Source: Opitutia bacterium
GTDB taxonomy: Bacteria > Verrucomicrobiota > Verrucomicrobiia > Opitutales > Opitutaceae
Reading direction: 5' to 3'
DNA: 64,000 nt
Assembly: GCA_016217545.1 (NCBI GenBank)
Contig: JACRHT010000017.1
Span: 124,001 to 188,000, forward strand
Shown in pieces: positions 34,568-54,877 of the stretch (the first letter of the stretch is position 1; each line of letters opens with the position of its first letter). The notes under the pieces were generated by a model. That model was not told the origin of the DNA. It worked only from the letters and a program-made list of their open reading frames with translations, and searched no databases. The translations under genes were made by a program, and so were the position numbers.

Positions 34568-34651
34568 GGCGCGACCGCTGATCCGGCGAAAAACTTGCTG
34601 ACGTGGCGCGACGTCGGACCGCACAATGACGGTCACTTCGCTCCGTCCACG

Positions 34652-35104
34652 ATGAATTCCCTGGCCAAACTCCTCCGCCGCGACCGCCACGACTGGCTGC
34701 TCGCGTTCGAGGCGTTCGCCTTTCTGTGTGCCGCGAAGATTGTCGTGCTCCTCGTGCCGTTTCGCCGCTACGCGGCGCGACTGGGCCGCAGCGAGCACGA
34801 GACGACGCCCACGATTTCCCCGGCTGATCGCCGCGTGGCAGTCAAAATTTCGTGGGCGGTGCAGGCTGTGGCGCGGCACGTGCCGCTCGGTTTCGTCTGC
34901 CTGCCGCAGGCTCTCGCGGCGCAACGCATGCTCCGCCGCCGGCGTTTGTCGAACACGCTCTACTTCGGCGTGGCGCTGCTCGCCGAGAAGCGCGACGACA
35001 TGATGGCACATGCGTGGATCCGCACCGGCGACAAGATCGTCACCGGCGAACGCGAGGCCGCCGCCCACGTCGTGGTCGCAAGGTTCGCCGACGAAGCGCG
35101 CTAA
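34652..35104 (+). CDS. Lasso-peptide B2-like transglutaminase-like leader peptidase
   Basis: 150 residues, matching the usual B2 length. It has a membrane-like N-terminal segment (about 16-36), then the Transglut_core3 pattern: nucleophile Cys in 'PLGFVCLPQALAAQRMLRRRR' (Cys near 81), 'TLYFGVALL', and the His of 'AHAWIRTGDKIVTGE'. In lasso systems this Cys/His protease, guided by the PqqD-like B1, removes the leader before ring closure. The ATG at 34652 was chosen; an in-frame ATG at 34595 would add 19 residues. It is on the plus strand, convergent with the JmjC/PqqD genes, and starts the accessory cluster. It could instead follow the MFS gene transcript, 84 bp upstream. Confidence 0.8.
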   Translation: MNSLAKLLRRDRHDWLLAFEAFAFLCAAKIVVLLVPFRRYAARLGRSEHETTPTISPADRRVAVKISWAVQAVARHVPLGFVCLPQALAAQRMLRRRRLSNTLYFGVALLAEKRDDMMAHAWIRTGDKIVTGEREAAAHVVVARFADEAR

Positions 35105-35116
35105 ACGCCCACGCGA

Positions 35117-36229
35117 CTACGGCGCGGCGTATTCCAGCACGCCCAAGCCTGCGAGGAACCGGCACAGCAGCACCGCATCCGCCACGTTGGCGGTCGGCAG
35201 CTGCGCGGGGGTGAACTCGCCGGTCCGCTGCATCCACGCGACGGGCTCGGCCCAATCGTGGGCCAGTTGCAACGGATGCCGACGGTAGCCGCGCATGAGT
35301 TCGGGCAGGCCGTTGACGGGCCGCGCGAACTCGGTGCCGCTCGACCAGCGCAGGCGACTCGCTTCGGTCAGCCGCTCCAATTCCTGCCTCGTGATCGCTT
35401 CGCTGGTGGGCACCGCCACGCTCAACTGGGAAAAATCGCGGTAGTAGTCCGCAGCGCACTGGGCCAGATCAACGAACGGCAGCAGCGCGCCCAACCGCTC
35501 GCGCACCTGGTCGGGAGTTGCCTGTAGGTTTGCGCCGACGATCAGTCGTTCATTGAGGGTCGGGTTGTCGACGCGCGCCTGTTGCAACGCGCGCTGAAAA
35601 ACCTCGCCCCACGTCAGCGGATGGAAACCGATCGTGAAGTGCACCGACGTTTCGACGCCGCGATTGCGCACCTCGTGACGCGTGCCCTTCGGCACGAAGA
35701 GCCAGCCGCCGGTTTGCAGCGTCATCTCGCTCTTCACGCCGGCGGCGTCGTAGATATCCCAGTCTTTCTGCCCTTGGATTTGCAGGATCAGCACGTCGTG
35801 CGGATCCACGTGCACGCCGAGTCCCTGATTCCCGCCGGGCGTGATGTAGACGTTGATCTGCACCGGGAGATGGAACTCCGCCTCGAGCGTCCGCGTCAGC
35901 GCGAGCGCGATGTTCGAGAAATTCTCAAAATGACTGAACGCGACCGAAGCGCCGGCGGCGCGAATCTGCCGGAAGGCCTCCTCGCGGAACGCGCCCATGC
36001 GATCCGTGAAGGCCGCCACCGGCACCTGCTTGCCGCGGCTCAACGCCCGGAAGTGCGGGTGTCGCGTGACGGAGGTGAAGCGGCACGAGGCGTCGAGATC
36101 CCAGTCGGCCCAGAGTCCTTGGAATCGACGCGGCGCGTCGGTCGCGATGTGCGTGACGGTCGCGCGGCGCTCGAACGCCGTGCGAAATTCGTTCCACTCC
36201 GCCGGGCCAATGAGGGAAACCAGGTCCAT
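35117..36229 (-). CDS. JmjC/cupin-4-type 2-oxoglutarate oxygenase, copy 2
   Basis: 370 residues. It matches the JmjC group that includes bacterial ribosomal oxygenases: 'GLGVHVDPHDVLILQIQGQK' (about 148-167) with the iron-binding H-x-D, 'DWDIYDA', and 'LFVPKGTRHEVRN' with the distal His (about 190-202). The C-terminal half resembles the winged-helix part of those enzymes. It shares many blocks with the protein at 36906 (R-F-x-x-x, 'GKQVP', 'HFTIGFHPL.W'), so the two are paralogs. It follows a PqqD-like gene by 20 bp. A likely role is hydroxylation of a peptide side chain; the target is unknown. Confidence 0.82.
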   Translation of the reverse strand: MDLVSLIGPAEWNEFRTAFERRATVTHIATDAPRRFQGLWADWDLDASCRFTSVTRHPHFRALSRGKQVPVAAFTDRMGAFREEAFRQIRAAGASVAFSHFENFSNIALALTRTLEAEFHLPVQINVYITPGGNQGLGVHVDPHDVLILQIQGQKDWDIYDAAGVKSEMTLQTGGWLFVPKGTRHEVRNRGVETSVHFTIGFHPLTWGEVFQRALQQARVDNPTLNERLIVGANLQATPDQVRERLGALLPFVDLAQCAADYYRDFSQLSVAVPTSEAITRQELERLTEASRLRWSSGTEFARPVNGLPELMRGYRRHPLQLAHDWAEPVAWMQRTGEFTPAQLPTANVADAVLLCRFLAGLGVLEYAAP

Positions 36230-36249
36230 GTGATTGGGGCGCCCCGCGC

Positions 36250-36528
36250 TCAGGGGCTGCGTTCGATGAGTTGACGCGCGAGCAGCTGGCGCAGGAACGC
36301 CTCGGTCGCCTCGCGACACGCCGCGTCGTCGATGGCGAACTCGCGAGTGAGAATGCGGACGAGATCCGGCACGCTGCGCGGCTCCTCCAGAAGGGCCCAG
36401 ATGCGTGCGCCCACGGCGTTGACGCCGAAGTAGGCCTGCTCGCCGCGATTCACCAGCACCGCCGCGCGATCGACTTGCATGCGCTCGATCGCCCGCGCGC
36501 GCTGGAACACCGCGGTGTCCTCGAGCAT
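36250..36528 (-). CDS. PqqD-like RiPP recognition protein, copy 2
   Basis: 92 residues from the ATG at 36528, which lies 4 bp past the first PqqD stop; a TTG at 36546 could start it earlier and overlap. The pattern 'AAVLVNRGEQAYFGVNAVGARIWALLEEPRSV' (seen across about 21-52) followed by 'CREATEAFLRQLLARQLIE' is the PqqD winged-helix fold (RRE), as in lasso B1. RREs bind the leader of a precursor peptide and bring it to the enzymes. It shares weak identity with the neighbour at 36533. Confidence 0.83.
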   Translation of the reverse strand: MLEDTAVFQRARAIERMQVDRAAVLVNRGEQAYFGVNAVGARIWALLEEPRSVPDLVRILTREFAIDDAACREATEAFLRQLLARQLIERSP

Positions 36529-36532
36529 GGAA

Positions 36533-36823
36533 TCAGGTCGAGGCAACGGGATCCTTCACCGAGGCGAGTTGCGCTTCGACGAGCTTGCCGACGAAGGTCA
36601 TCACGTCCGCCTGGCATTGCTCGGCCGTGACGTTGTAAGCCTTGATCAACTCCGCCACCACGGCGGCCACGGTCCGCGGCTGCTCGATCAGCGCCCAGAT
36701 CGCGCTGCCGCGCTTGTCGAGGCCGAAGGTTCGGCCGGTGGTCAGACTCATCAGCACCACTTCACCGTCGATCTCGGTGGCGATGGTTTCGGGATTCCGG
36801 GAGAGCACGGTTTGGGGCGACAT
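36533..36823 (-). CDS. PqqD-like RiPP recognition protein, copy 1 (B1-like)
   Basis: 96 residues. 'GEVVLMSLTTGRTFGLDKRG' (about 19-38) followed by 'SAIWALIEQPRTVAAVV' and 'CQADVMTFVGKLVEAQLASV' is a very typical PqqD/lasso-B1 sequence. It lies directly after the JmjC gene at 36906 (82-bp gap) and directly before the second PqqD gene. It is the more canonical of the two and the better candidate for the partner of the B2 protease at 34652. Confidence 0.88.
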   Translation of the reverse strand: MSPQTVLSRNPETIATEIDGEVVLMSLTTGRTFGLDKRGSAIWALIEQPRTVAAVVAELIKAYNVTAEQCQADVMTFVGKLVEAQLASVKDPVAST

Positions 36824-36905
36824 GATGAACGAGCGAGTAGAGATCAGGCGTTCGCTCGGTCAAGTATCAACCTGAACAACCGGAGGCTCCGAGCGGCATC
36901 CGGTG

Positions 36906-38033
36906 TCAGCGTTTCGCGGCAAATTGCACCACGCCGACGTGGGCAAGAAATCGGCACAGCAGGACGCTCTCCGCCTCCGGCAGCGCCAACTCGCCGGGCG
37001 TAAAGCCACTCGCCGCTCCCATCCGCCGCAGAACGTCGGCCAGCTCCGGGCGCAGCCGCAACGGCACGCTGCGGTAGGCCAGCGACAAATCGCAGCGATC
37101 GGGGCGCGCGTCGCACGTCACCGCATCGCCGCGCCAAGCCAATCGCGTGTCGCGATCGATGCTCTCCAAGCGTTCACGTGCGACCACCTCGCCGTCGGGC
37201 AGCGGCACGCCGTAGCGCTCCACCGCCATCGCCTCGGCGAGGAAGGCCGGCAACATTTCCAGGCGGCGGGCAACCTCCGCCGCGGCCGGCGCGCCGCCGA
37301 GCACCGAAAGCGGTTCACGCCACGCCGGTGAGGCCTGCCGCGCGCGCTGCACCGCAGACTCGATGCCGGCCGCCCAACTCAGCGGATGAAACCCGATCGT
37401 GAAATGCGTCGACGGCTCGTCGCCGCGATTGCGCACCTCGTGATAGACGCCCGCCGGCACGAACAACCAGCTGCCGGTCTCCAACGTGAATGTGTCCGGC
37501 GGTTCGCTCTTCAACTTCGCCGGCACCTCGGCGGCCGGCCAGCGATCGGAGCCATGGTAGACATCCCACGTTTTGCTGCCCTGCACTTGGAGGATCAGCG
37601 CGTCGCCGTGATCGGCATGCAACCCGAGTCCCTGCGCGCGCGGCGGCGTGGAGAAAAAGTGCACCCGCACATGACAATCGAACGCGCGCTCGATCTCGCG
37701 CACCAGCGCGAGAACGGTGTTCGAATAGGCCTCGACCCGCGGGAAATTCACCGTCGCGCCCGACTGCCGGAATTGTTGCACCGCCGCATGCAGCGCGGCG
37801 GCCGGCCTTCCGCGATAGGTCGGCGGCGGCACCTGTTTCCCGTGCGTCACGAGTCGGAAGGTGTCCGACTCGGGCAGCACCGTGAAGCGGCAGATCGCCT
37901 CCAGCTCCCACTCGGCCCACAGCGCGGCGAAACGCTCCGCCACGCGCTCGGGACGGGCGATCGCATAGCGCCCGCGATAGGCCGCGAGCAGTTCACTCGA
38001 TCCCGTTTCCCCAATGAACGATGACAAGCGCAT
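36906..38033 (-). CDS. JmjC/cupin-4-type 2-oxoglutarate oxygenase, copy 1
   Basis: 375 residues from the ATG at 38033 (MRLSSFIGE); an ATG at 38054 would add seven residues. Iron motif 'GLGLHADHGDALILQVQGSK' (H-x-D, about 144-163) and distal His in 'LFVPAGVYHEVRN' (about 197-209). It has the same domain plan as the protein at 35117-36229, and each is paired with a PqqD-like gene, which suggests a duplicated oxygenase-plus-RRE module. It follows the HTTM gene at 38079 by 45 bp in the same direction. Confidence 0.82.
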   Translation of the reverse strand: MRLSSFIGETGSSELLAAYRGRYAIARPERVAERFAALWAEWELEAICRFTVLPESDTFRLVTHGKQVPPPTYRGRPAAALHAAVQQFRQSGATVNFPRVEAYSNTVLALVREIERAFDCHVRVHFFSTPPRAQGLGLHADHGDALILQVQGSKTWDVYHGSDRWPAAEVPAKLKSEPPDTFTLETGSWLFVPAGVYHEVRNRGDEPSTHFTIGFHPLSWAAGIESAVQRARQASPAWREPLSVLGGAPAAAEVARRLEMLPAFLAEAMAVERYGVPLPDGEVVARERLESIDRDTRLAWRGDAVTCDARPDRCDLSLAYRSVPLRLRPELADVLRRMGAASGFTPGELALPEAESVLLCRFLAHVGVVQFAAKR

Positions 38034-38078
38034 GACAGTTATTCGATAGGTCACCGCGAGCGGCGGCGAGGCCAGATT

Positions 38079-38885
38079 CTACGCGCCGCCGCCTCCGAGG
38101 ATTTTCCCGTGCACGTAGATCAAGCCGGGATACGCCGCCATGAACGACCACCAAAAGCCGTGCAGGCCCATCACGACCGCCACGAGGCCGTGGAAAACCA
38201 CGCCGCCGACCAGCATCGCCTCGAAATACGGCGAAGGCAGCAAGAGCGCCGCCGGCATCGCCAGCTCCCAGCCGATGATCCACCACGACGAAAGGCGCGC
38301 CAGATTGCCGCGCGCCAGCGGCAGCGCGAAAGACGGCCACAGATACGGTCCGTCGGCCGCGATTTGCCGCAGCCGCTGCCCGTCGCTCCACGCCCGCGAC
38401 CGCAGCTTGTGCAAACCCGCCACGAAATAAGCCAGCACCACCTGCGCCGCCATGAACGCGAGCGCGACTCCGCGCACCCACGTGTCCACCTGCGGCAGCG
38501 CCCCGGCGCCCGCGGCCACGAGCGCAATGAGGAAGACGGTCTCGCAGTTTCCGGCCAGGATGACGAAACGGCGATTGTAGTAGAGCTGGATGGCCACCAG
38601 CGCGGCCGCCACGACGAAGGCCATCATGGACGGGTAAGGCAAAAAAAACGCCGTCGCCGCCAAGGCGGCCCGCATCGCCAGAATCCACGCGCAGCCCGGA
38701 AAATCGTCGGCCACGCGAATCAAGTTGCGCCACCAACTCGTGCGACGATCGATCCGGCCGAACAATCGTCCGGCACGCAGTTCGTGCCCGTGCGACAGAA
38801 CTTCGCAGGATTGGATGCACACACCGATCGCACTCAGGCGAAGCGTGAGCGCCAGCAGCGCAACCGCATCAGACGCGTCGATCAT
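38079..38885 (-). CDS. HTTM-type membrane protein, module copy 2
   Basis: 268 residues with about six or seven helices. Blocks such as 'AIQLYYNRRFVILAGNCETV', 'VLAYFVAGLHKLRSRAWSDG' and 'ELAMPAALLLP' with 'VVFHGLVAVVMGL' follow the HTTM domain found in vitamin-K-dependent gamma-carboxylase relatives. The spaced His residues are kept (GLHKL, FHGL). The ATG overlaps the stop of the companion gene at 38882 (ATGA). A function beyond the membrane is not known; in RiPP clusters an epoxidase/carboxylase-like modifying role is possible but unproven. Confidence 0.75.
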   Translation of the reverse strand: MIDASDAVALLALTLRLSAIGVCIQSCEVLSHGHELRAGRLFGRIDRRTSWWRNLIRVADDFPGCAWILAMRAALAATAFFLPYPSMMAFVVAAALVAIQLYYNRRFVILAGNCETVFLIALVAAGAGALPQVDTWVRGVALAFMAAQVVLAYFVAGLHKLRSRAWSDGQRLRQIAADGPYLWPSFALPLARGNLARLSSWWIIGWELAMPAALLLPSPYFEAMLVGGVVFHGLVAVVMGLHGFWWSFMAAYPGLIYVHGKILGGGGA

Positions 38886-39451
38886 CGCGCCGCCTCCGTT
38901 CGCTCAAGGACGACCTCTTCTGCGATCAGCGCGACCGGCGCCTCCGCTCCCGTGTCGCTCGGATACCGCAGCCGCGAACTCCTCCGCGTCAGGCGGATTT
39001 CGCGCTGCGTGCCCGGCGGCCGCGGGCACGTGTCCTCGAGGTGCCGGGCAATCAGCTTGCCGTGACGTTCCGCAATCCGTTCCGCGCCCTCGACCGCGGC
39101 ATCGCGAACATAGCCCAAATCCCGCCCGAGTCGGTGCAGACGATCCGCCACGCGCCGCTCCGGTTGCCACAGGCAAGCATGCCATCTCCACGGCCGGCCT
39201 TGCATCGCTATCCGCCAAGCCGCCTCTTGCCCCGGAGCCCGATCCCGAAATTCCAACGTGAAACGCACGATCCCGCTGTCCTCGCGCCCGGTGCCAAAGA
39301 CCGTCCAGTCGGCGAACCACAGTCCGTGATTGAACGCGCTCAACCACCCGCGCCCCCAACGCCGCGGCACCGCGAAAAGAATACTGCCGAGCGTCCACAC
39401 CGCCGCGAGGACCACGAAACCGTATTCGACGATGAGGAGAAACGTGCGCAC
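38882..39451 (-). CDS. HTTM companion protein, module copy 2
   Basis: 189 residues from a GTG start at 39451 (VRTFLLIVEYGFVVLAAVW). One N-terminal membrane helix (about 4-25) is followed by a soluble domain with 'AFNHGLWFADWTVFGTGRED', 'VRFTLEFRDR' and a His-containing Trp-rich block 'WRWHACLWQPERR'. It matches the layout of the proteins at 40264 and 50176: one TM, a 'W/Y-x-x-F' block, then 'F-x-x-x-x-R-D'. No family name is recognised. It lies 10 bp after the HTTM gene at 39462 and overlaps the next HTTM gene by ATGA. Confidence 0.72.
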   Translation of the reverse strand: MRTFLLIVEYGFVVLAAVWTLGSILFAVPRRWGRGWLSAFNHGLWFADWTVFGTGREDSGIVRFTLEFRDRAPGQEAAWRIAMQGRPWRWHACLWQPERRVADRLHRLGRDLGYVRDAAVEGAERIAERHGKLIARHLEDTCPRPPGTQREIRLTRRSSRLRYPSDTGAEAPVALIAEEVVLERTEAAR

Positions 39452-39461
39452 CGGAGGAAGC

Positions 39462-40280
39462 TCAGTTCGGCGCCGCGCGCCACCAAGCGGCCAGCCACTC
39501 GTGCACGAAATACATCGCGGGATAGGTCGCGCCGAACGCCCAAAGAAACATCGGCAGCCCCATCGCGACACCGATGATTGCGTGAAACAGAATCCCCGCC
39601 GCGAGGAAGGTCCAGAGACCGCTCGGCGGCAGCACGAGGCATAAGGGGAAAAACACCTCGAGCAAAATCGTGCCCCACGCCAGCAGCGCCCCGATCGGCG
39701 GGCGACTCGCCAACTTCGCCAGCGCCGGCACGCGATACGAGCTGTCCTGAAACACGGCGACCAACCGCACGCCCGTGCGCCAATTGCCCGCGAGCAGCTT
39801 GTCGACGCCCGCCGCGACGTAGCCGAACAACCCGTGAAACGCGATGAACCCGAGCGCCAAGGCGCGCAGACCGAAAGACGCACCCGGCCAGCCCGCGGCC
39901 GCGAGCGCGCCCAGGCACAACAAATTCAGGTGATCCGCATTGGTCAGGACGATCGCGAAACGCCGGTTGAAATACAGCTGCCCCACGAACAGTCCGACCA
40001 ACACGCCCGCGCTGGCCGCGGTCCCGAACGGGAGAAACCAACAAGCCGCCCCCGCCAGCGCCCGCACGAGCAGAAAGAGGCGATCGGACGACCAATCCCC
40101 TTCTGAGACGGACGCCACCGACGCGCCTGCCAGCGCGCGCGCCGACTCGCGCCCCAACACGTGCCCGTCACGCAATTCCCGCCCCAGCCACGCCAGCTCC
40201 AGCGACTGCCACACGAGCCCCACGGAGCAAATGCGCGCGCTCCACGCCAGACACGCGGCAGCTTCAGCGTCCAGCGCCAT
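39462..40280 (-). CDS. HTTM-type membrane protein, module copy 1
   Basis: 272 residues from the ATG at 40280 (MALDAEAAACLAWSARICSV). 'VGQLYFNRRFAIVLTNADHL', 'GFIAFHGLFGYVAAGVDKLL' and 'GTILLEVFFPLCLVLP' with 'GILFHAIIGVAMGL' are HTTM-like and align by eye with copy 2 at 38079. About seven helices. It overlaps the end of the companion gene at 40264 by 17 bp. The strict pairing with a companion gene suggests the two proteins form one membrane complex. Confidence 0.77.
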   Translation of the reverse strand: MALDAEAAACLAWSARICSVGLVWQSLELAWLGRELRDGHVLGRESARALAGASVASVSEGDWSSDRLFLLVRALAGAACWFLPFGTAASAGVLVGLFVGQLYFNRRFAIVLTNADHLNLLCLGALAAAGWPGASFGLRALALGFIAFHGLFGYVAAGVDKLLAGNWRTGVRLVAVFQDSSYRVPALAKLASRPPIGALLAWGTILLEVFFPLCLVLPPSGLWTFLAAGILFHAIIGVAMGLPMFLWAFGATYPAMYFVHEWLAAWWRAAPN

Positions 40281-40791
40281 GGGATCTCCCGGGAAATTCG
40301 AGCACTTTCTCCATCGTGCCGTCGCTCGCGAACCGCCGCACCACGCGAAACTCGCGCGGCGCCGTGCCGACACGCGGATGGCGGCGCTCGATCAACGCCT
40401 CCAGCACTCGCGCGCGCTCCATTCCCAGCGCGGTGAGCGGCGGGCGTTGCCCAAAACACGAGCGGATTTCGCGCCCGAGGTTTTGCACCGCCGCCGCAAC
40501 GAATCGCTCCGGCAGCCAGAAAAACGCGCGCCACGCCCAACAGGAACCGCACGCGCCGAGCTGCCAATCAGGATCCGTCGCCTTCCCGACGCGGTCGCGG
40601 AAATGGACTTCGAAGATGCCGGGCCTGATCGTCGCATTGGCGGGAGAAAACAACGACCAGCGGGAGAAGAGGCGGCTCCCGTTCATCTTGTCCAGCGGCC
40701 GATTCAGACCGCGCAGCGGCAGGTTGAAGAACAGCACGCCGAGGGTCCACAGGACCAACAACGAAGCGAGAATGGTATCAAGCCAGGGCAT
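40264..40791 (-). CDS. HTTM companion protein, module copy 1
   Basis: 175 residues. The N-terminal helix (about 6-24) is followed by 'FNLPLRGLNRPLDKMNGSRL' and 'FSRWSLFSPANATIRPGIFE', then 'VHFRDRVGK' and a Cys/Trp block 'LGACGSCWAWRAFFWLPERF'. The C-terminal part is soluble. It shares the layout of the other two companions but has a Cys pair (ACGSC) that they lack. It is the first gene of a minus-strand run that continues to 35117 and is divergent from the sulfotransferase at 40917. Confidence 0.74.
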   Translation of the reverse strand: MPWLDTILASLLVLWTLGVLFFNLPLRGLNRPLDKMNGSRLFSRWSLFSPANATIRPGIFEVHFRDRVGKATDPDWQLGACGSCWAWRAFFWLPERFVAAAVQNLGREIRSCFGQRPPLTALGMERARVLEALIERRHPRVGTAPREFRVVRRFASDGTMEKVLEFPGRSHGAGR

Positions 40792-40916
40792 GCCGCCGGA
40801 GGGAGAGATCGCCGAAGCTACGCCACCAGACGCCCGAGTGTCGAGGCAGCCGGTGCCGCACCGCGCGTTTTTTTAGCGCGCTGCGCCTCGGGCCGCGCCA
40901 ACCTGCCCGCGACTCC

Positions 40917-41855
40917 ATGGCCAGCGCACCCTCCGCTTCCCACCGTGCCGATCCGAGCTACCTCAGCGCCGGCTTGGAGCATTGCCCATTCCCGCGCGGC
41001 TACGTCACCGCCGGTCACCGCTCGTTCGTGCCGCTCCGCGCCCTCGCACCGGCCGCCGCGTCGTCGCTCGACGTTGTTTCGCTGTCCGGATTGGTGGCAA
41101 GGACTGAGTCTGAACCCACGCTCCCGGTGGCGGCCCTGATTTTTCACTGCAGCCGCTGCGGCTCGACGCTGCTGGCCCGCCTGCTCGCACTCGATCCGGC
41201 GAACCGGGTATTCGCCGAACCGGATGTGCTGGCGAAATTCGCGTGGCGACATCACGCCGAGCTGTCGGCGGGCAGCTTCGCGCGAGAATTGCGGGCGTTC
41301 ATCCGCGCCTTCGGCTTGGGACCGCGAACGCATGAGCAACGGCTGGTGCTGAAGCTGAGCTCGCACGCGCTCGTTCATCTTCCGGCGTTCCGCGCGGCGT
41401 TTCCGGGCGTGCCTTTTTTCTACCTCTTTCGCGAACCGTCCGAAGTGGTCGCGTCGCTCACCGCCAGCGAACCCCACTTCCTCCGCGAGAAATCACGGGC
41501 GCGGCTGGCCGAAATCTGGGGTCTGAAGCCCGGCGAGGAAAGACCGCAGAACCTCGCGGCGTGGGCAGCGTGGTATATCGAACGGAACCTCTCTCTCGGG
41601 CTCGCCCACCGCTCGGAATTTGCCGCCGCAATCGACTATCGCGACCACGTCGCCCACTACCTGAAAATAGCCGGCGAATTCTCCGAACACGCCCTATCGC
41701 CTGATAATTCCGAGGTGGTGCGCACCCTCGGCAGCTATTCCAAGGACCAGCGACGCGGGTTTCATCCCGGAGCGATACACACCGTAAACACTTTTGCGTC
41801 CCGCGCCGCTACTCCCGCGAGCACACAAGCCTACCATGACCTGTGTGCGTCCTGA
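40917..41855 (+). CDS. Sulfotransferase-family protein, copy 2
   Basis: 312 residues. The PAPS 5'-phosphosulfate-binding motif is seen as 'LIFHCSRCGSTLLARLLALD' (about 74-93), and a 3'-phosphate-binding-like block as 'GVPFFYLFREPSEVVASLTA' (about 163-182; R-x-P-x-x-V-x-x-S). Both suit the Sulfotransfer family. It is the only plus-strand gene in the middle of the cluster and is convergent with the candidate precursor gene, the two stops lying 28 bp apart. A likely role is sulfation of Tyr, Ser or Thr in the peptide product, or of a sugar on it. Confidence 0.78.
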   Translation: MASAPSASHRADPSYLSAGLEHCPFPRGYVTAGHRSFVPLRALAPAAASSLDVVSLSGLVARTESEPTLPVAALIFHCSRCGSTLLARLLALDPANRVFAEPDVLAKFAWRHHAELSAGSFARELRAFIRAFGLGPRTHEQRLVLKLSSHALVHLPAFRAAFPGVPFFYLFREPSEVVASLTASEPHFLREKSRARLAEIWGLKPGEERPQNLAAWAAWYIERNLSLGLAHRSEFAAAIDYRDHVAHYLKIAGEFSEHALSPDNSEVVRTLGSYSKDQRRGFHPGAIHTVNTFASRAATPASTQAYHDLCAS

Positions 41856-41890
41856 CGGGCCCTCCCAGCCGGAATCAGCCTGATCAGGAC
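41849..41890. repeat. Short inverted repeat spanning the convergent stops of sulfotransferase and precursor genes
   Basis: GTCCTGA (41849-41855) is the reverse complement of TCAGGAC (41884-41890), and each arm holds one gene's stop codon. With no T-tract it is at best a weak bidirectional terminator. Confidence 0.35.
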
Positions 41891-42075: not shown

Positions 42076-42107
42076 GGTTACGTTAGACGCTGAACGTCGT
42101 CCCCGGG

Positions 42108-44066: not shown

Positions 44067-44120
44067 GTCACGGTGGCCACCGCTCCCCCGCCCGTGCGGT
44101 CCGGAACAGCGCTCGTCGGG

Positions 44121-45149: not shown

Positions 45150-45166
45150 AAAAATGAATCTCCCCT

Positions 45167-47473: not shown

Positions 47474-47492
47474 CCGGCGTCCACGAGAAACG

Positions 47493-48437: not shown

Positions 48438-48443
48438 CGCCGC

Positions 48444-49340
48444 TCACTCCAGCACCAGCTGGCAAAGCTCGTCCAACGCGAAGCCGTCCACCGGGCGCGA
48501 CAGACGCACGACATCGACCGCCTGCGCGAGTGCGATGCTCACGGTCGCCAGCCGCACCGGATCGGTCACGATCTTCGCCATGCGCCGCCGGAAGAAACTC
48601 CGCTGCAATGCGCTCACGCGCTCGTGGCCGGTCAGCGGGGTCCGGCGTGGGAGGCGCAGGGTCTCGTCGCGCTCGAGGAAACAGATGCGCGCGATCGGCA
48701 CTGGCCGCGTCGCCACGGCACCACCGTAGTTCAACCGAAACTTGTCGTCGGACGCATCGAAGACGCGCGTCGCGTCCAGTTCGTCGCCCAGCTCATCATG
48801 CGAGTCTTCCCGCAAGCGCATCGCCGGAAAACTCGCCGTCGCGAAGAACTCGCCGTTTGCGCCCGCAGTCACGACCGTGATGTCGTCCGAGATGAATTCG
48901 CAGCCGCGAGCCAGCAGCGCCGACGCCGTGGTCGATTTCCCCGCGCCCGATGGCCCCATGACAAGGTAGGCGCGTCCTTGCCAGCTCACCGCGCTCGCGT
49001 GCAGACAAAGTCCGCCGCGCTGATAGAGCAACGCCGACGACACCGTTCCAGCCAGCGCGTTCGTAAGCCAAGCCGGATTCGCGTCGGGCGCCGGCTCGAC
49101 GACGATGCGTTCTCCCGCTTCCACGATGACCCGCATCACGCCCGGAAAATTAAACCATCCTCTGCCCACACCGCCGCGAAAAACTCCGTGCCACAGGTCC
49201 TCGCCCGCGGGTGGCTCCGCCGGCACGATCCCGCGCACGATACGCGCATCCCAGGGCGCCGAGCCTGGCCCCCAGAATGGAACTTCAAAGTCCGAGAGGA
49301 CGTTGAGGCCGAAAGCCCGATAGTGATACGGCGATTCCAT
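48444..49340 (-). CDS. HprK-like kinase, copy 2
   Basis: 298 residues from the ATG at 49340 (MESPYHYRAFGLNVLSDFEV). 'LCLHASAVSWQGRAYLVMGP' (about 112-131) runs into the Walker A 'GPSGAGKSTTASALL' (about 130-144), and 'GCEFISDDITVV' (about 148-159) is the Asp-Asp block. Same fold as the protein at 46562, but with a canonical P-loop. Two HprK-like kinases in one cluster suggest two phosphorylation sites or one kinase with another role. It follows the HTTM gene at 49415 by 74 bp in the same direction. Confidence 0.82.
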   Translation of the reverse strand: MESPYHYRAFGLNVLSDFEVPFWGPGSAPWDARIVRGIVPAEPPAGEDLWHGVFRGGVGRGWFNFPGVMRVIVEAGERIVVEPAPDANPAWLTNALAGTVSSALLYQRGGLCLHASAVSWQGRAYLVMGPSGAGKSTTASALLARGCEFISDDITVVTAGANGEFFATASFPAMRLREDSHDELGDELDATRVFDASDDKFRLNYGGAVATRPVPIARICFLERDETLRLPRRTPLTGHERVSALQRSFFRRRMAKIVTDPVRLATVSIALAQAVDVVRLSRPVDGFALDELCQLVLE

Positions 49341-49414
49341 GAACAGCGCGAATTGTTCCGACCTGCACTGGCAACGCCACCGCAAATTTCCGCCGCGCCG
49401 CTTGGTGCCGCCGC

Positions 49415-50179
49415 TCAACTCACGCAGAAGATCAAGTAGGCCGGACCGAGATAAATCCAGTAGTGGATCCGCATCAGCACCGCCGTTCCGACGTGGAACG
49501 CCACGCCCGCCGGCACGAAAACCCACGCCAGCACGGGAAACGGAATCACCAGCCAGAACAGCAGCTCGAACAGCAGCACGAACGTCGCCGCCGCGCGACA
49601 CATCACCGGCCGCCGCGCCAGCCACTCGGCCAAGCGATTGCCGTCGCGCAGCCGATAACGCAGCAGCGCCATGCGAAACGTCGTGCCGCGCATCCATTCC
49701 GCGCCGCCGCGACTGAGCTTCACCAAGGCCGACGAAAAATAGATCTGCGCCAGCAGCAGCTTGATCATCAGTGGACAGAGCCACGCCCGCGCGTCGGCGG
49801 CTCCGGCGGGCAACAACGCCGCCGCGCCGAGCAACGCCAGGATCACGGGCACGGTATTCGGCTTCCGTCGCACCGCCGGCAACTCGATCACCTGTGCAAA
49901 ATACACCAACGCCGCGACCCCGGCCGCGACGAGCGCCGGCACCACCGCCACGCCGGAGGCCGCCAGCGCCAGGCACGTCACAAAGACCCCCGCAACGCTA
50001 GCAAAACTCCCGGCGCCGAGTCGCGGCATCGGCATCCAACTGAGCAAGCGCGGCAGCTCCCGTCGCTCACCCCGCTCCCGCACCCAACGCCAGTGCGCCG
50101 GAAACTGCACCGCGACGGCGAAGGCGATTGAGCCCGCGTAAACCGCCCGGAAAAAATCGAGGTTCGCCGTCGCGTTCAT
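49415..50179 (-). CDS. HTTM-type membrane protein, module copy 3
   Basis: 254 residues, about six or seven helices. 'LLLAQIYFSSALVKLSRGGA' (about 139-158) with 'WMRGTTFRMALLRYRLRD' and 'FVLLFELLFWLVIPFPVLAW' (about 191-210), 'GVAFHVGTAVLMRIHYW' match the HTTM pattern. It is more diverged than copies 1 and 2. The ATG overlaps the companion stop (ATGA). It is well apart from the other two copies, on the far side of the kinase and sulfotransferase genes. Confidence 0.75.
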   Translation of the reverse strand: MNATANLDFFRAVYAGSIAFAVAVQFPAHWRWVRERGERRELPRLLSWMPMPRLGAGSFASVAGVFVTCLALAASGVAVVPALVAAGVAALVYFAQVIELPAVRRKPNTVPVILALLGAAALLPAGAADARAWLCPLMIKLLLAQIYFSSALVKLSRGGAEWMRGTTFRMALLRYRLRDGNRLAEWLARRPVMCRAAATFVLLFELLFWLVIPFPVLAWVFVPAGVAFHVGTAVLMRIHYWIYLGPAYLIFCVS

Positions 50180-50778
50180 GCGCCCACCGCGCGCCCAACC
50201 GGCGCTGATTCATGCACAATCTTCTCCCCCACGACGACCTTGTCGCCGGGGAGCGTGCGCGCGACACGCATCACGATCGCCACCTTCTCCGCCCCGGCGA
50301 GCGCCGGTTCGAGCCGGCACGCCTCGCGCCAGCCGCGGAACATCAGCTCATCCAGCAACTCCGCGGACGGTTGCCCCGCGCTCGCCCACAGCCGCTCGCA
50401 CTCGCGGTGGAATGGATCGACCAACGCATCCGCGACTCCGCTCGCGCCCACCACACGTCCATCGGGTAGCCGCACTTGCAGCCGGAAAAACCGCACCGAC
50501 CCCGCATCGAGTTTCTCCGCGAACATCGGATAATGCGAAAACGGCCAAAGATCGCGCCGCGCCACGGTTGCCCACACCAGCAGCATGCCCACGGCTGCAC
50601 CGACGAAATGCAGCACGCTCAACGCGCCTGAATCCACTGCGGCCACGAAAAACGGGGAAAGCACGGAGCCAGACTGACGCTCCGTCCGCGTCAGGCGATA
50701 GCGGAATCGCCTGCACACCCGCATCGCCGCTCGCGTTGCCCGGCGGCAATGGGATTGAAGCGCGGCCGAAGACCCCAT
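50176..50778 (-). CDS. HTTM companion protein, module copy 3
   Basis: 200 residues. After a basic start there is one membrane helix (about 54-72), then 'DLWPFSHYPMFAEKLDAGSV' (about 76-95) and 'RFFRLQVRLPDGRVVG', the pattern of a soluble domain that follows HTTM genes. The start is uncertain: ATG at 50778 or 50724 (MRVCRRF). It has the same arrangement as 40264 and 38882 (companion first, HTTM second, overlapping). It is divergent from the gene at 50841, with about 60 bp between. Confidence 0.7.
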   Translation of the reverse strand: MGSSAALQSHCRRATRAAMRVCRRFRYRLTRTERQSGSVLSPFFVAAVDSGALSVLHFVGAAVGMLLVWATVARRDLWPFSHYPMFAEKLDAGSVRFFRLQVRLPDGRVVGASGVADALVDPFHRECERLWASAGQPSAELLDELMFRGWREACRLEPALAGAEKVAIVMRVARTLPGDKVVVGEKIVHESAPVGRAVGA

Positions 50779-50840
50779 GGACTGAGCGCCTCCGGTCCAT
50801 GCCCGTCCGTCGTCTGCGCCGTGGGCCGCGCCACCTTCCC

Positions 50841-52115
50841 ATGTCGTCGAACTTCCCGGAAATGCTCTGGCTCCGCGCTGCGGCCCGCGCGTGCTTACCG
50901 CCCGAGATCTCGGCGACGGATACGTCGGAACCGGGAATCGTCGCGCCAGACTGGACTCGATTGCTCTGGCTCGCCCGCGTCCACCGCGGGCTGCTCTTCC
51001 TCGCCCACGGACTCGCCGGCGGACAATTGCGCCTCGCCTGTCCCGCCGAGATTCGCACCTCGCTCGACGAACTTCGCGCGGTCGCTCATCTGCAAGCTCT
51101 CGCCCGCGCCAGCGAAATCGCCCACCTCGGCGACGTGCTGCAGCAACACGGCGTCGCGTGGGCCGTGGCCGATGACTGGATGTTCACTCAATGCTTCGCC
51201 CCGGACCGGCCGCTCGCGGAAACCACGGAGGCGATTCAACTGCTCGTCCGGGAAGGCGACTTGCCGCAAGCGCGCGCCGCGCTCGCCATCGCCGGACACC
51301 GCGAGGTGAATCGGAGCTTCGAAGTGGCGGCGCTCGGCCACACGCCGGTGAAACTGGTTGCGACGGCGGCAGCACCGCAGTCCGTGCGCGGTCCCTCGAT
51401 CGCCGGCCGCGTGCTGCCCCGGCTGCCCGATGAGGAATGGTTGCACTTTCTTGCGCACGATCACTCGCCGCCCCTGCGTTTCGATCTGCTCCGCGCCTGG
51501 CAAACGGTCTATCTCGCTCATGCGGTCGTGGGGTCCGCCACGGCCGCGCCGGCGGTCGCGGGAGCACTGAACCACAGCCGTCGCATCCTCGGATTGCCCG
51601 CGCCAACGGAAACCTCGGCTCCGCTCCCCGCCGGAGCGGGCGGCGCGTTGCCTATCCCCCCGTTCGTGCCGACGCCGGAAATCGTGGTGGAGCGCATGCT
51701 GGCTCTCGCCGAAACCACCGCCGCCGACACGGTGATGGATCTCGGCTCGGGCGACGGGCGCGTCGTGCTCGCGGCGGCGCGGGACTTTGGCGCCTGCGCG
51801 TGCGGCATTGACCGCGATCCGGCGCTGATCGCCCGCGCGCAAGAGCAAGCGGAGCAAGCCGGGCTCGGCGCGCGAGCGCGCTTTCTCTGCGCCGATCTCT
51901 TTGCCGCCGACGTCAACGGCGCGAGCGTGATCTGCCTGTATTTGCTGCCGGCACTTTATGCACCGGTGCGCGAGCGGCTGTTGCGGCACGCGCGACCGGG
52001 CACGCGCGTCGTGTCGCACGATTATTTCTTCCCGGATTGGCCGCCGGAAAAAACCGCATTGGTGCGCACATCACCCGCGCGGATGGCCCAGATTTATCTC
52101 TGGCGCATCCCCTGA
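50841..52115 (+). CDS. Degenerate nucleotidyltransferase domain fused to a SAM methyltransferase
   Basis: 424 residues from the ATG at 50841 (MSSNFPEMLWLRAAARACLP); ATG 50799 is possible. Residues about 1-260 have the helical pattern of NTP_transf_5 proteins seen in lasso clusters ('LLWLARVHRGLLFLAHGL', 'LGDVLQQHGVAWAVADDWMF'), but where that family has K-G and D-x-D residues this protein has A-D-D and T-T-E-A-I, so the nucleotidyl transfer site looks lost. Residues about 275-424 are a class I methyltransferase: 'DTVMDLGSGDGRVVLAAARD' (motif I) and 'CGIDRDPALI'. The fusion suggests that the first half now only binds the peptide for methylation. This is inference. Confidence 0.72.
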   Translation: MSSNFPEMLWLRAAARACLPPEISATDTSEPGIVAPDWTRLLWLARVHRGLLFLAHGLAGGQLRLACPAEIRTSLDELRAVAHLQALARASEIAHLGDVLQQHGVAWAVADDWMFTQCFAPDRPLAETTEAIQLLVREGDLPQARAALAIAGHREVNRSFEVAALGHTPVKLVATAAAPQSVRGPSIAGRVLPRLPDEEWLHFLAHDHSPPLRFDLLRAWQTVYLAHAVVGSATAAPAVAGALNHSRRILGLPAPTETSAPLPAGAGGALPIPPFVPTPEIVVERMLALAETTAADTVMDLGSGDGRVVLAAARDFGACACGIDRDPALIARAQEQAEQAGLGARARFLCADLFAADVNGASVICLYLLPALYAPVRERLLRHARPGTRVVSHDYFFPDWPPEKTALVRTSPARMAQIYLWRIP

Positions 52116-52136
52116 GTTTTGGCTGGATGGAGCGAG

Positions 52137-52943
52137 ATGCTGATCTCCGTCGCAATCACTCCCGCCGAACAAACCGCTCGCGCGCTCTCCGCGGAAAATC
52201 TGGCGGAAGCTTCGCGCGCGCTGCGAACGCACGGCTGCGTCATGCTGCGCGACGTCCTTGCTCCGGAGCACATCGCGGCGATGCGCGAGGAGGTGTTGGC
52301 CCGCAACCCGCCACTCCAACGCGCTGAACGGCCTGAAATCTCCGGGCGAGTCGGTAACCGGCGCTTCATGGCGGCGCTCGAACTCTCCGGACCGTTCGGC
52401 TCGCCGGACTTCTTCGCCAATCCGTTCGCGCTCCCGGTGCTGCGCGCCGTCGTGGGACCGGAAATGATCATCGGCGCGTTCGGCGCGGTGACCTCGTTGC
52501 CCGGGGCGCAGGATCAGCATGTCCATTTCGACGGTCCGCCGCTGTTCAACAAAGCCATCAATCGTCTCGCCCCGGCCCACGCGGTGAACTTCTTCGTGCC
52601 GCTGGTCGAGTTCAACGCCTCCACCGGCACCACGCGGCTGTTTCCGGGCACGCACCTCGATGTGGATCGCGATGTCACCAGCGCGCCCTTCGTGGATCCG
52701 ATTATTCCCGTCGGTTCGTGCCTGCTGATGGACTATCGGCTCAAGCACCAGGGGCTCGCGAATCGCTCCGAGCTGGTCCGCCCGCTCCTCTACACCGTGT
52801 TTCAACAACCGTGGTTCAAGGACTACAAGAATCACGGCCGCGTGCCCTTCCTGCGACTCTCCGACGCCGACTACGCGCGCATGGCGGAGGAGCATCGCGC
52901 CCTGTTCTCGTGGACGGAACACTATCGTAACGGTCTCTACTGA
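52137..52943 (+). CDS. Phytanoyl-CoA dioxygenase family oxygenase, copy 2
   Basis: 268 residues from the ATG at 52137 (MLISVAITPAEQTARALSAE). 'DQHVHFDGPPLF' (about 129-140) gives the H-x-D pair, 'LLMDYRLKHQGLANRS' (about 196-211) the distal His, and 'RPLLYTVFQQPWF' carries the Arg for 2-oxoglutarate. It resembles the PhyH group but shares little with copy 1 at 47493, so it probably has its own target. It lies 21 bp after the methyltransferase fusion and is followed after 100 bp by the exporter. Confidence 0.85.
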   Translation: MLISVAITPAEQTARALSAENLAEASRALRTHGCVMLRDVLAPEHIAAMREEVLARNPPLQRAERPEISGRVGNRRFMAALELSGPFGSPDFFANPFALPVLRAVVGPEMIIGAFGAVTSLPGAQDQHVHFDGPPLFNKAINRLAPAHAVNFFVPLVEFNASTGTTRLFPGTHLDVDRDVTSAPFVDPIIPVGSCLLMDYRLKHQGLANRSELVRPLLYTVFQQPWFKDYKNHGRVPFLRLSDADYARMAEEHRALFSWTEHYRNGLY

Positions 52944-53043
52944 GGCGCGCCGCGCACCGCCGACGCACCGGACGGCGGACGGAGATTTCAGGTGACTCGC
53001 CCGACCGCGAACGCACACTCGGCCCATCGTCGTCCGTTGCCCT

Positions 53044-54861
53044 GTGTCCGACTCCGCCCCGCACCCTCGCTCCTTTGAACTGTTCCGCGCATTCTGGCAG
53101 TCGTTCGCGGGCTACGCGCGCGGACGTCTGTGGGGCGCGCTGGCGCTGATCGTGCTCATCGGCGGCGGTGAGGCCGCGGGTCTGTTGCTGCTTCTGCCGC
53201 TGCTGCACAGTGTCGGCTTGGGCGAAATCCAACCGCTGAGCGGCTGGGCCGCCGTGCCGCTGCATGCGCTCGACTGGCTCGGCCTGCCGCGGACGTTGGC
53301 GGTATTGATTGCGGTTTTCGTGGCGCTCAAGGTCGCCCAAGCGCTGCTGCGCGCCTACTCGGGCTTCGTCGGGCTCAACATCCAGACCGGCTACACGGAC
53401 TACTTGCGCAACCGCCTCTACCGCGCGCTGGTGCAGGCGAACTGGCTGTTCGTCGCCCGCCAACGCAGTTCGGACATCAGCCACGCGCTGGTGCACGAAA
53501 TTCCGTCCGCCGGCGGGGCCGGCCAGCAAATGCTGAATCTGCTGGGCAACGGCTTGATGGCCCTCGCGCAAATCGGCGTGGCGTTCGCGCTCTCCCCTTC
53601 GATGACCGCGATGGCGCTCGCCTCGGGTGCCGTCTTCGCGCTCGGACTGCGCCGCCTGCGCCGGGCGGCCTTTGAACAAGGCAAGCTCGGCTTCGGCGCC
53701 CGCGCCGAACTGACGCACACGGTCAACGAACACCTCGCCGGCATCAAAATCGCCAAGAGCCAGGGGCGCGAGGAGCTGCATCTCCGGAAATTCCAGCAAG
53801 CGACCGCGGCCATCGTGGCGCATACGCTGCGCCTCTACCGCTTCAACGCATTCACGCGCATCTGGCTCGAACTCGGCGCCGTGGTCGCGATCGGCGCGTT
53901 CGTTTGGTTCGCCGTCACGATCGGCCAAGTCGAACCGGCGCGGCTGATCGTGCTGGCGTTCGCATTCTCGCGGCTCCTCGCCTACGCCAACTCGCTGCAG
54001 GACACGTGGCACCAGCTCACGTTGTCATTGGCCCCTTTCGCCATCACCGAGCGGCTCCGCTCGGATTTGGAAACCGCCGCCGAGCCGCCGCCTCCCGCGG
54101 TGACCGAGCGCCTCGCGCTGCAGCACGAGCTGCGCATCGAAAACCTGTCGTTCTCCTATGCGCCCTCCGCCGGCGACGCGAAGGTCGCGCTGCACGACAT
54201 CAATCTCGTCATGCCCGCGCGCCGCGTCACGGCGCTCTGCGGACCTTCCGGCGCTGGAAAAAGCACGCTCGCCGATCTCGCACTCGGCCTGCTCGTGCCG
54301 ACGCGGGGCCGAATCCTGATCGACGGACATTCCCTCGCCGGCCCGCGCCTTCACGACTGGCGGCAATCGATCGCCTACGTGCCGCAGGAGACGTTCCTGT
54401 TTCACGACACGGTCCGGCAAAATCTCCTTTGGGCGCAGCCCTCGGCGTCGGAGGCGGATCTGCGCGCGGCCCTGTGCGCCGCCGCCGCGGAAGAATTCGT
54501 GCAGCGGCTCCCGCAGGGGCTCGACACCCTCGTCGGCGACCGCGGCCTGCGCTTGTCCGGCGGCGAGCGCCAGCGCATCGCGCTCGCCCGCGCGCTCCTG
54601 CGCCGGCCGACGTTGCTCGTGCTCGACGAAGCCACCAGCGCACTCGACACCCACAACGAGCGCCTCGTGCAGGACGCGATCGAGAAACTCGCCGGCGAGC
54701 TCACGCTCCTCCTGATCGCCCACCGCCTTTCCACGGTGCGGATGGCCGACAACATCGTCGTGCTCGACCGCGGATCGATCGTCGAGACGGGTTCCTGGGA
54801 GGCCTTGAGCCAGCGCGACGGTGGAGCATTCCGCCAGTTGATCGCCGCCGATAAAGGCTGA
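53044..54861 (+). CDS. ABC exporter (lasso D-like), fused membrane and ATP-binding domains
   Basis: 605 residues, GTG start (MSDSAPHPRSFELFRAFWQS). Residues about 20-330 form a type I exporter membrane domain with six helices. The C-terminal nucleotide domain has Walker A 'GPSGAGKSTLADLALGLL' (about 399-416), signature 'RLSGGERQRIALARALL' (about 502-518), Walker B 'LLVLDEATSALD' and the switch His in 'LLIAHRLSTV'. No C39 peptidase is fused, so leader removal must be done elsewhere, in keeping with the B2 protease. It closes the plus-strand run methyltransferase, PhyH, exporter and would secrete the mature peptide. Confidence 0.87.
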   Translation: MSDSAPHPRSFELFRAFWQSFAGYARGRLWGALALIVLIGGGEAAGLLLLLPLLHSVGLGEIQPLSGWAAVPLHALDWLGLPRTLAVLIAVFVALKVAQALLRAYSGFVGLNIQTGYTDYLRNRLYRALVQANWLFVARQRSSDISHALVHEIPSAGGAGQQMLNLLGNGLMALAQIGVAFALSPSMTAMALASGAVFALGLRRLRRAAFEQGKLGFGARAELTHTVNEHLAGIKIAKSQGREELHLRKFQQATAAIVAHTLRLYRFNAFTRIWLELGAVVAIGAFVWFAVTIGQVEPARLIVLAFAFSRLLAYANSLQDTWHQLTLSLAPFAITERLRSDLETAAEPPPPAVTERLALQHELRIENLSFSYAPSAGDAKVALHDINLVMPARRVTALCGPSGAGKSTLADLALGLLVPTRGRILIDGHSLAGPRLHDWRQSIAYVPQETFLFHDTVRQNLLWAQPSASEADLRAALCAAAAEEFVQRLPQGLDTLVGDRGLRLSGGERQRIALARALLRRPTLLVLDEATSALDTHNERLVQDAIEKLAGELTLLLIAHRLSTVRMADNIVVLDRGSIVETGSWEALSQRDGGAFRQLIAADKG

Positions 54862-54877
54862 GTTCCGCGCAAGAAAA

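What the first reader, a model, noticed from the sequence alone, without database searches (positions are those of the whole stretch)
34652..54861. A 20-kb, heavily decorated lasso-peptide-like biosynthetic cluster
One region holds a B2-type protease, two PqqD-like RREs, a glutaminase-dead asparagine-synthetase-like cyclase, a small peptide with a WxxPxL leader and an ABC exporter, which is the full lasso A-B1-B2-C-D set. Mixed in with short gaps and overlaps are two HprK-like kinases, two sulfotransferases, six putative non-heme-iron oxygenases, a methyltransferase fusion and three membrane modules. Known lasso clusters have one or two tailoring genes. This many different modifying enzymes for one visible precursor would be new. 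The alternative is that several independent systems lie side by side.
Basis: partly seen in the sequence, partly recalled or inferred. Interest (0 to 1): 0.92.

Follow-up and report, generated by a model that had tools for sequence, protein, structure and literature searches.

The report
Lasso peptide cluster with many tailoring genes
One block of 22 genes plus a small peptide gene, missing from a closely related genome at that spot, holds a complete lasso-peptide pathway surrounded by an unusually large set of peptide-modifying enzymes, so it may make an unusually heavily decorated knotted peptide.

Summary
The region is a 20.3-kb block (34,540-54,873) that a same-genus genome lacks; 745 bp stand there instead. 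It carries all lasso genes: precursor, two PqqD-type RREs, B2, glutaminase-dead cyclase, ABC exporter. Its two ends are lasso genes, and RREs, cyclase and exporter each share a same-strand run with tailoring genes.

The cyclase falls in a supported clade (97/93) with six other loci; RREs (98/94) and kinase 1 (SH-aLRT 89) fall with overlapping sets. Five of the six have WxxP precursors ending in Ser; four have a sulfotransferase by kinase and cyclase. So kinase, sulfotransferase and precursor have real precedents; JmjC genes sit in two cyanobacterial lasso loci. The PhyH enzymes, cupin, small 2OG enzyme, second sulfotransferase and three SdpA/HTTM pairs gave no homologue in 84 loci and are tied in only by position. 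HTTM protein 2 resembles the vitamin K carboxylase fold (E not significant).

Verdict: a new variant of the phosphorylated (paeninodin-type) lasso cluster. That all enzymes act on one peptide is likely, not shown.

The parts
34540..54873 (.). the inserted block (absent in same-genus genome G196, where 745 bp lie instead); edges are where alignment stops, not exact junctions
   Evidence: blastn of window against G196 region: flanks 90.8% and 91.8% identical, nothing aligned between
34595..35104 (+). B2 leader peptidase (likely start 34652)
   Evidence: NF033537 88.4 bits; PF13471 80.1 bits
35117..36319 (-). JmjC_2 oxygenase b (start uncertain; nearest solved: MINA53/NO66 histidyl hydroxylases)
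   Evidence: PF08007 65.4 bits; profile of both JmjC hits MINA at E 4.6e-16; HxD...H kept
36250..36546 (-). PqqD-like RRE 1 (B1)
   Evidence: PF05402 60.5 bits; tree
36533..36823 (-). PqqD-like RRE 2 (B1)
   Evidence: PF05402 62 bits; NF033536 73.3 bits, cutoff 80; tree
36906..38054 (-). JmjC_2 oxygenase a, 41% identical to b
   Evidence: PF08007 59.9 bits; alignment
38079..38885 (-). SdpB/HTTM-like membrane protein 2; vitamin K carboxylase-like predicted fold
   Evidence: TIGR04033 20.3 bits, cutoff 178.4; Foldseek top four are GGCX, prob 1.00, TM 0.56-0.60, rmsd 7.4-7.8, E 0.07-0.1
38882..39457 (-). SdpA-like protein 2 (start uncertain)
   Evidence: 33% identity with SdpA-like 1; overlaps the next HTTM gene by 4 bp
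39462..40280 (-). SdpB/HTTM-like membrane protein 1 (ORF open to 40373)
   Evidence: TIGR04033 22.2 bits, cutoff 178.4; alignment
40264..40791 (-). SdpA-like protein 1
   Evidence: alignments
40917..41855 (+). sulfotransferase-like protein b (weak)
   Evidence: PF13469 21.8 bits, cutoff 27
41884..42075 (-). precursor A, 63 aa; leader motif WDTPQL; proposed core AKYCQFGSE... ending in Ser
   Evidence: sequence; motif scan and simulation; relatives
42108..44066 (-). lasso macrolactam cyclase C, Ser2 (no glutaminase Cys)
   Evidence: NF033535 410.6 bits, cutoff 525; clade 97/93
44121..45041 (-). cupin protein with HxH...H (ORF start uncertain)
   Evidence: motif; E 0.16 to a 3-mercaptopropionate dioxygenase; no Pfam hit
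45167..45712 (-). small HxD...H 2OG-oxygenase-like protein (ORF start uncertain)
   Evidence: motif; codon-position GC frame; no Pfam hit
45717..46565 (-). sulfotransferase a
   Evidence: PF00685 82.1 bits; 46% identical to the one in a Sporomusa lasso locus
46562..47530 (-). HprK-like kinase 1 (groups with the L009 paeninodin-type kinase; start uncertain)
   Evidence: alignment; tree
47439..48437 (+). PhyH-family oxygenase 1
   Evidence: PF05721 46.3 bits; SnoN E 5e-6
48444..49355 (-). HprK-like kinase 2, perhaps a different kinase lineage (start uncertain)
   Evidence: TIGR04355 38.2 bits, cutoff 200
49415..50179 (-). HTTM-like membrane protein 3
   Evidence: PF05090 19.4 bits, cutoff 27.7; alignment
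50176..50778 (-). SdpA-like protein 3 (weakest)
   Evidence: 19% identity with SdpA-like 2
50841..52115 (+). degenerate NTP_transf_5 domain fused to SAM methyltransferase
   Evidence: motif loss
52119..52943 (+). PhyH-family oxygenase 2
   Evidence: PF05721 44.6 bits
53044..54861 (+). ABC exporter D
   Evidence: PF00005 111.2 bits; homologues in 61 of 84 loci with a cyclase relative

Best explanation
The block is one patchily distributed lasso-peptide gene cluster of the WxxP, HprK-kinase type (paeninodin-like) in which a kinase-sulfotransferase-cyclase-precursor core has been enlarged by further tailoring genes. Proposed working: the 63-aa precursor is held by its WDTPQL leader on the PqqD RREs; while still linear, HprK kinase 1 phosphorylates the C-terminal Ser and sulfotransferase a sulfates a hydroxyl (Ser/Thr is likelier than Tyr, since two of the clade's precursors have no Tyr in the core); JmjC, PhyH and small 2OG enzymes hydroxylate side chains and the cupin may oxidise Cys; B2 then cuts the leader (most likely after Ala-Gln, giving Ala1) and the cyclase joins residue 1 to Glu9 (Lys1-Glu8 is the alternative register); the ABC protein exports. 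The SdpA/HTTM pairs act at the membrane on the product or protect the producer. Shown: gene content, island, clade membership, precedents for kinase, sulfotransferase and JmjC. Inferred: every chemical step, and that all enzymes serve one peptide.
For: Empty site in G196 and block ends that are lasso genes. RREs lie in one same-strand run with SdpA/HTTM/JmjC, cyclase and precursor in the kinase/ST/2OG/cupin run, exporter in the NTP-MT/PhyH run, with gaps of -110 to 125 bp on the coordinates used; B2, ST b and PhyH 1 stand alone. Cyclase clade of 8 rows 97/93 (also SH-aLRT 95 among 89 rows); RRE clade of 7 rows 98/94; kinase 1 in 8 rows, SH-aLRT 89. K-ST-C order in Mucilaginibacter L088 (twice), K-ST-ST-C in Desulforapulum L076, K-ST-B1-C in Pleionea L069, K-C-ST in Sporomusa L091. 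In that clade 5 of 5 precursors found (6 loci) have W, C-terminal Ser and an acid at the ring position, against 11, 19 and 24 of 56 others. JmjC between kinase and cyclase in L026 and L084. No second hit for the cyclase, HTTM or JmjC among the sampled genomes of genus and family.
Against: No Thr at leader position -2 in either register. The leader motif alone is expected 2.3 times per simulated island. No clear ribosome-binding site before the precursor (by eye). No homologues of PhyH 1/2, cupin, small 2OG, ST b or SdpA/HTTM in the 84 loci. Kinase 2 groups with other kinases (support only 72). The clade's members are long branches (RRE 1: 5.46), the RRE bootstrap had not settled and the kinase tree is a quick one without a starred branch around the window rows, so joins may be partly artefact. 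The NTP domain looks inactive. G+C of the block (0.67) is like that of its flanks.
Confidence: 0.72

Rival explanations
1. Two RiPP systems lie interleaved: a WxxP kinase/ST lasso pathway, and a second pathway with its own RRE, kinase 2, JmjC and SdpA/HTTM genes, like the LPP systems that neighbour paeninodin loci in Bacillota.
For: Two RREs only 30% identical; kinases in different parts of the tree (support 72 and 89); LPP systems (RRE, HprK, NTP transferase, transporter) often co-localise with lasso loci (PMC13381572, passages); HTTM genes occur near non-lasso RiPP genes.
Against: Only one precursor candidate outside known genes; both RREs fall in the same clade; no signal peptidase family among the Pfam hits; the two RRE ORFs overlap; a single leader peptidase. 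A precursor without the motif would be missed.
Confidence: 0.2
2. The SdpA/HTTM pairs (and perhaps the lone PhyH 1 and ST b genes) are immunity, transport or unrelated passengers, and only kinase, ST a, JmjC and methyltransferase modify the peptide.
For: No homologue of these genes in the 84 loci; ST b and SdpA 3 are weak matches.
Against: Two HTTM/SdpA pairs sit in one run with both RREs; three copies would be unusual for a passenger; SdpA and SdpB are needed to process SdpC in Bacillus (PMC6818787, passages), though membership of that family was not met here.
Confidence: 0.35
3. The block is a decaying or non-producing cluster: precursor and NTP domain have degenerated.
For: No Thr(-2); degenerate NTP motifs.
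Against: The oxygenases, cyclase, sulfotransferases, methyltransferase and exporter keep the motifs looked for, the kinases theirs, and the B2 Cys, His and Asp are present by eye (my pattern for B2 was too narrow and found nothing). Frames are open.
Confidence: 0.1

Closest known systems
Paeninodin-type lasso clusters (reviews; L009 Priestia locus annotated 'paeninodin family')
   Same: cyclase directly followed by precursor, WxxP leader, discrete RRE, B2, exporter, HprK kinase, C-terminal Ser
   Different: ST, oxygenases, methyltransferase, HTTM pairs, second RRE and kinase; Thr(-2) absent
Pseudomycoidin (PsmK + PsmN phosphoglycosylation; seen only through the reviews)
   Same: kinase plus a nucleotidyltransferase-family gene
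   Different: here the NTP domain has lost its motifs and is fused to a methyltransferase
Bsf lasso system of Bradymonas (PMC10368454, passages)
   Same: A-B1-B2-C-D-K-N set; residue -2 is not Thr
   Different: Ile(-2), YxxPxL; phosphorylation of Ser3
K-ST-C lasso loci of Mucilaginibacter, Desulforapulum, Pleionea, Sporomusa (read here, no annotation at hand)
   Same: cyclase clade, kinase, sulfotransferase (Sporomusa's 46% identical), WxxP precursor found in three of the four
   Different: no homologue of the window's oxygenases or HTTM pairs found; one other 2OG gene in L088
Vitamin K-dependent gamma-carboxylase (GGCX) / SdpB / HTTM
   Same: predicted fold of one protein; invariant Lys aligns with GGCX chain position 218
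   Different: short, membrane part only; sequence match not significant (E 7.2); rmsd 7.4-7.8

Membership tests
Lasso peptide gene cluster | B2 transglutaminase-like leader peptidase | tested here: met
   NF033537 above cutoff
Lasso peptide gene cluster | discrete RRE (B1) | tested here: met
   PF05402 x2 above cutoff; the lasso-specific NF033536 is below cutoff
Lasso peptide gene cluster | Asn-synthetase-like cyclase without glutaminase Cys | tested here: met
   NF033535 best hit but under its cutoff; clade with cyclases of B1/B2 loci
Lasso peptide gene cluster | precursor with Y/WxxPx(L) leader | tested here: met
   WDTPQL
Lasso peptide gene cluster | Thr at leader position -2 | tested here: not met
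   Ala or Gln by register; Ile(-2) is proven and Ala(-2) predicted elsewhere (PMC10368454, passages), so not strictly defining
Lasso peptide gene cluster | Asp/Glu at core 7-9 | tested here: met
   Glu at 9 (or 8 in the other register); cleavage site itself inferred
Lasso peptide gene cluster | threaded product | not testable with these tools
   needs expression and MS/NMR
Phosphorylated (paeninodin-type) lasso | HprK kinase with His-Lys-Asp-Asp and C-terminal Ser | tested here: met
Pseudomycoidin-type (PsmN) | intact NTP_transf_5 enzyme | tested here: not met
   26.0 bits, cutoff 31.2; motifs lost
LPP (linear polyphosphorylated peptides) | signal-peptidase-like leader peptidase, no cyclase | tested here: not met
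   none; cyclase present
GGCX/HTTM carboxylase | fold | tested here: inconclusive
   prob 1.00, TM 0.56-0.60, but E 0.07-0.1 and rmsd 7.4-7.8; model pLDDT 79.7
GGCX/HTTM carboxylase | catalytic Lys218 (role recalled, not from a call) | tested here: inconclusive
   aligned Lys invariant in 7 of 7 rows; alignment not significant
SdpA/SdpB | TIGR04033 above cutoff | tested here: not met
   20.3 and 22.2 bits, cutoff 178.4

The most novel reading that the evidence does not exclude
The three SdpA/HTTM pairs are a RiPP tailoring module: membrane enzymes of the vitamin K carboxylase fold that use a reduced quinone to modify a lasso peptide (for example carboxylating or otherwise activating Glu), together with the JmjC, PhyH, sulfate and phosphate chemistry, giving a heavily decorated lasso and a bacterial peptide use of this fold. 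The genome has a VKOR homologue.
Probability: 0.15. Interest if true: 0.88.

Novelty: new variant of a known kind. Interest (0 to 1): 0.62.

Why it matters
Lasso peptides with several kinds of side-chain chemistry on one scaffold would widen what this class can make. The comparison also outlines a lasso cyclase clade with sulfotransferases in five phyla (window included), where sulfated lasso peptides could be sought directly, and points to HTTM/SdpA membrane pairs as neighbours of several RiPP loci whose role is open. In the library I found a putative sulfotransferase gene mentioned for Firmicutes lasso clusters (PMC8498205, passages) and JmjC homologues in RiPP-like contexts (PMC12710340, passages). 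The listings showed no paper on sulfated lasso peptides or on HTTM proteins in lasso clusters; few of the listed papers were opened, and preprints and most subscription journals are not held.

Tried and rejected
JmjC C-terminal part as a built-in RRE: profile comparison with PqqD proteins gave probability 0.2%, rejected. Cupin fold: single-sequence model pLDDT 45.1, not searched further; no relatives in plasmids at E 1e-4. Tyr as the conserved sulfation site: not supported, since the Sporomusa and first Mucilaginibacter core peptides have no Tyr. Integration at the tRNA-Asp with direct repeats: the repeat scan covered only 34,300-35,100, so it was not properly tested. PhyH, 2OG, cupin, ST b and SdpA/HTTM relatives in the 84 loci: none below E 0.1 in a single-sequence search without filters; distant members of the same Pfam families can be missed this way, as L088's 2OG gene was. 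One search's second-round column is void for queries with no first-round hit, because the script reused the previous query's model; I used first-round counts. One search's patterns for B2, for the kinase P-loop and for the NTP domain found nothing; the first two were written too narrowly, and I rely for those. The neighbour census covers 136 ORFs of 140-900 aa chosen by strand and gap from 49 of 78 loci and lists only 25 of 132 families. Loci L001-L005, L012 and L013 (own genome, or the short form of L011) were left out of the counts.
Full report
OBSERVATION. Refinements: the three membrane modules are three gene pairs, an SdpA-like protein followed by an SdpB/HTTM-like membrane protein; the methyltransferase fusion is a degenerate NTP_transf_5 domain plus a SAM methyltransferase; two of the six oxygenases are supported by metal-binding motifs alone; one of the two sulfotransferases is sub-threshold.

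THE BLOCK IS ABSENT IN A SISTER GENOME. The flanking sugar transporter and riboflavin kinase genes are 95% and 89% identical in the same-genus genome G196 and lie 0.9 kb apart there. DNA alignment stops at window 34,539 and resumes at 54,874; G196 has 745 bp between, with a different small ORF. The first gene of the block is B2 and the last is the exporter, followed by a tRNA-Asp. Insertion as one event is the simplest reading, but stepwise growth at one spot is not excluded. The cyclase was found in 2 of 387 sampled genomes of the phylum at E 1e-50 (own and G546) and, at E 1e-60, in 1 of 273 of the order (own). HTTM (E 1e-6) and JmjC (E 1e-10) profiles hit 1 of 194 genomes each (own). The two JmjC_2 genes are the only matches of PF08007 in the genome. 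Base composition does not mark the block as foreign.

RELATED LOCI. The sample is biased to the most similar cyclases and many contigs are short, so counts are lower bounds. First-round hits: RRE in 77 of 84, kinase in 73 (query 1) or 75 (query 2), B2 in 68, ABC in 61, sulfotransferase a in 4, JmjC in 2, the other window tailoring proteins in 0; without filters the NTP-MT fusion has weak hits (E 0.001-0.008) in three. PF14907 nucleotidyltransferases are common neighbours (27 of 136 ORFs); 2OG-FeII_Oxy_3 (4 of 136) and methyltransferase domains (up to 6 of 136 for one family) also occur. One 2OG gene lies between RRE and kinase in Mucilaginibacter L088, and Scytonematopsis L026 has JmjC, two methyltransferases and a nucleotidyltransferase.

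THE CLADE. A careful tree of 35 cyclases (the clade rows and every third of the others) puts the window's with L088 (two), L076, L069, L091, L009 and L011 at 97/93; a quick tree of 89 gave the same 8 rows at SH-aLRT 95. Both window RREs fall with L091, L076, L088 (two) and L009 at 98/94 in a tree of 80, whose bootstrap had not settled; L069's RRE falls elsewhere on a long branch. Kinase 1 falls with L076, L091 (two), L009, L088 (two) and L069 at SH-aLRT 89; kinase 2 falls with L006, L089, L073, L090, L079, L063 and L087 at only 72; neither branch is starred. Clade rows are long, so caution is due. Four of the six clade loci (L069, L076, L088, L091) carry homologues of sulfotransferase a; L091's is 46% identical to the window's, while the best cyclase segments are at most 40%. 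L011 has sulfotransferase-like proteins by eye only (not tested) and an Asp/Asn hydroxylase. Precursor candidates were found in 61 of 83 cyclase loci by a motif that requires Thr at the leader end; in the clade 5 of 5 begin the motif with Trp, end in Ser and have an acid at the expected place, against 11, 19 and 24 of 56 others. L069 gave none. The window precursor shares Trp, acid and C-terminal Ser but has no Thr, so it would itself have been missed by that search.

PRECURSOR AND CHEMISTRY. MNTGDTRAAWDTPQLIALDLGSAQ / AKYCQFGSEGGPDNGPLPSTSINPQNPAQYCSGSPISPS. In the register of L009 this gives Ala(-2), Gln(-1), Ala1 and Glu9; the register of L091 and L088 gives Gln(-2), Lys1 and Glu8. Ile(-2) has been shown and Ala(-2) predicted for lasso peptides (PMC10368454, passages). 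PadeK-type kinases act on the C-terminal Ser of the linear precursor (PMC8498205, PMC9266682, passages). WxxP leaders are typical of paeninodin precursors (PMC13381572, passages). Motif alone is expected by chance 2.3 times per island, so the identification leans on position behind the cyclase, acid, C-terminal Ser and the kin. The core has two Tyr-Cys pairs, suggestive for the cupin and oxygenases but nothing more.

MEMBRANE PAIRS. A model of HTTM protein 2 from three window rows has pLDDT 79.7; its four best PDB matches are GGCX complexes (prob 1.00, TM 0.56-0.60, rmsd 7.4-7.8, E 0.07-0.1). A seven-row profile has GGCX as its only PDB matches, not significantly (E 7.2 and 9.8), and aligns the invariant Lys with GGCX chain position 218. 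That this residue is the catalytic base is recalled. Of ten plasmid records with HTTM matches I read the surroundings of seven: an HTTM gene stands beside LanB/LanC genes in two Streptomyces, about 4 kb from YcaO genes in Haloplanus, and near a methyltransferase and ABC transporter in Embleya and GBA 94-10; Rhodococcus and Paroceanicella show no RiPP gene names. SdpA-like partners were aligned for Haloplanus, S. atratus and Embleya only, at 18-21% identity. SdpA and SdpB are required to process SdpC (PMC6818787, passages). APS kinase and VKOR homologues are present in the genome.

VERDICT. A real lasso cluster, kin to a WxxP kinase/sulfotransferase clade, with a larger tailoring set than I saw in any other locus. 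That rests on window-protein queries and partial Pfam scans, not on a full annotation of the 84 loci. The single-system reading is favoured, not proven.

Noticed in passing
L088:4725-6505 and L069:5327-5878: Phage tail collar domain (PF07484) proteins sit beside the kinase/sulfotransferase lasso genes in both Mucilaginibacter and Pleionea.
   Followed up: no
L098, L099, L100, L117: HTTM genes, some with an SdpA-like partner, near YcaO, LanB/LanC or methyltransferase/ABC genes in an archaeon and actinobacteria.
   Followed up: partly
G000:C16:551904-553697 and 578311-580044: Other asparagine-synthetase-like genes in the same genome, 26-30% identical to the cyclase.
   Followed up: no
50841-51700: NTP_transf_5 domain that has lost the KG and DxD motifs but is kept in a fusion with a methyltransferase.
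   Followed up: partly
L114:4203-4947: At the empty site the sister genome has a different small ORF that resembles an exported protein by eye.
   Followed up: no
neighbour ORFs of the lasso loci: APS kinase (3 of 136) and ATP sulfurylase (2 of 136) families appear among neighbours, possibly sulfate-donor supply; which loci was not resolved.
   Followed up: no
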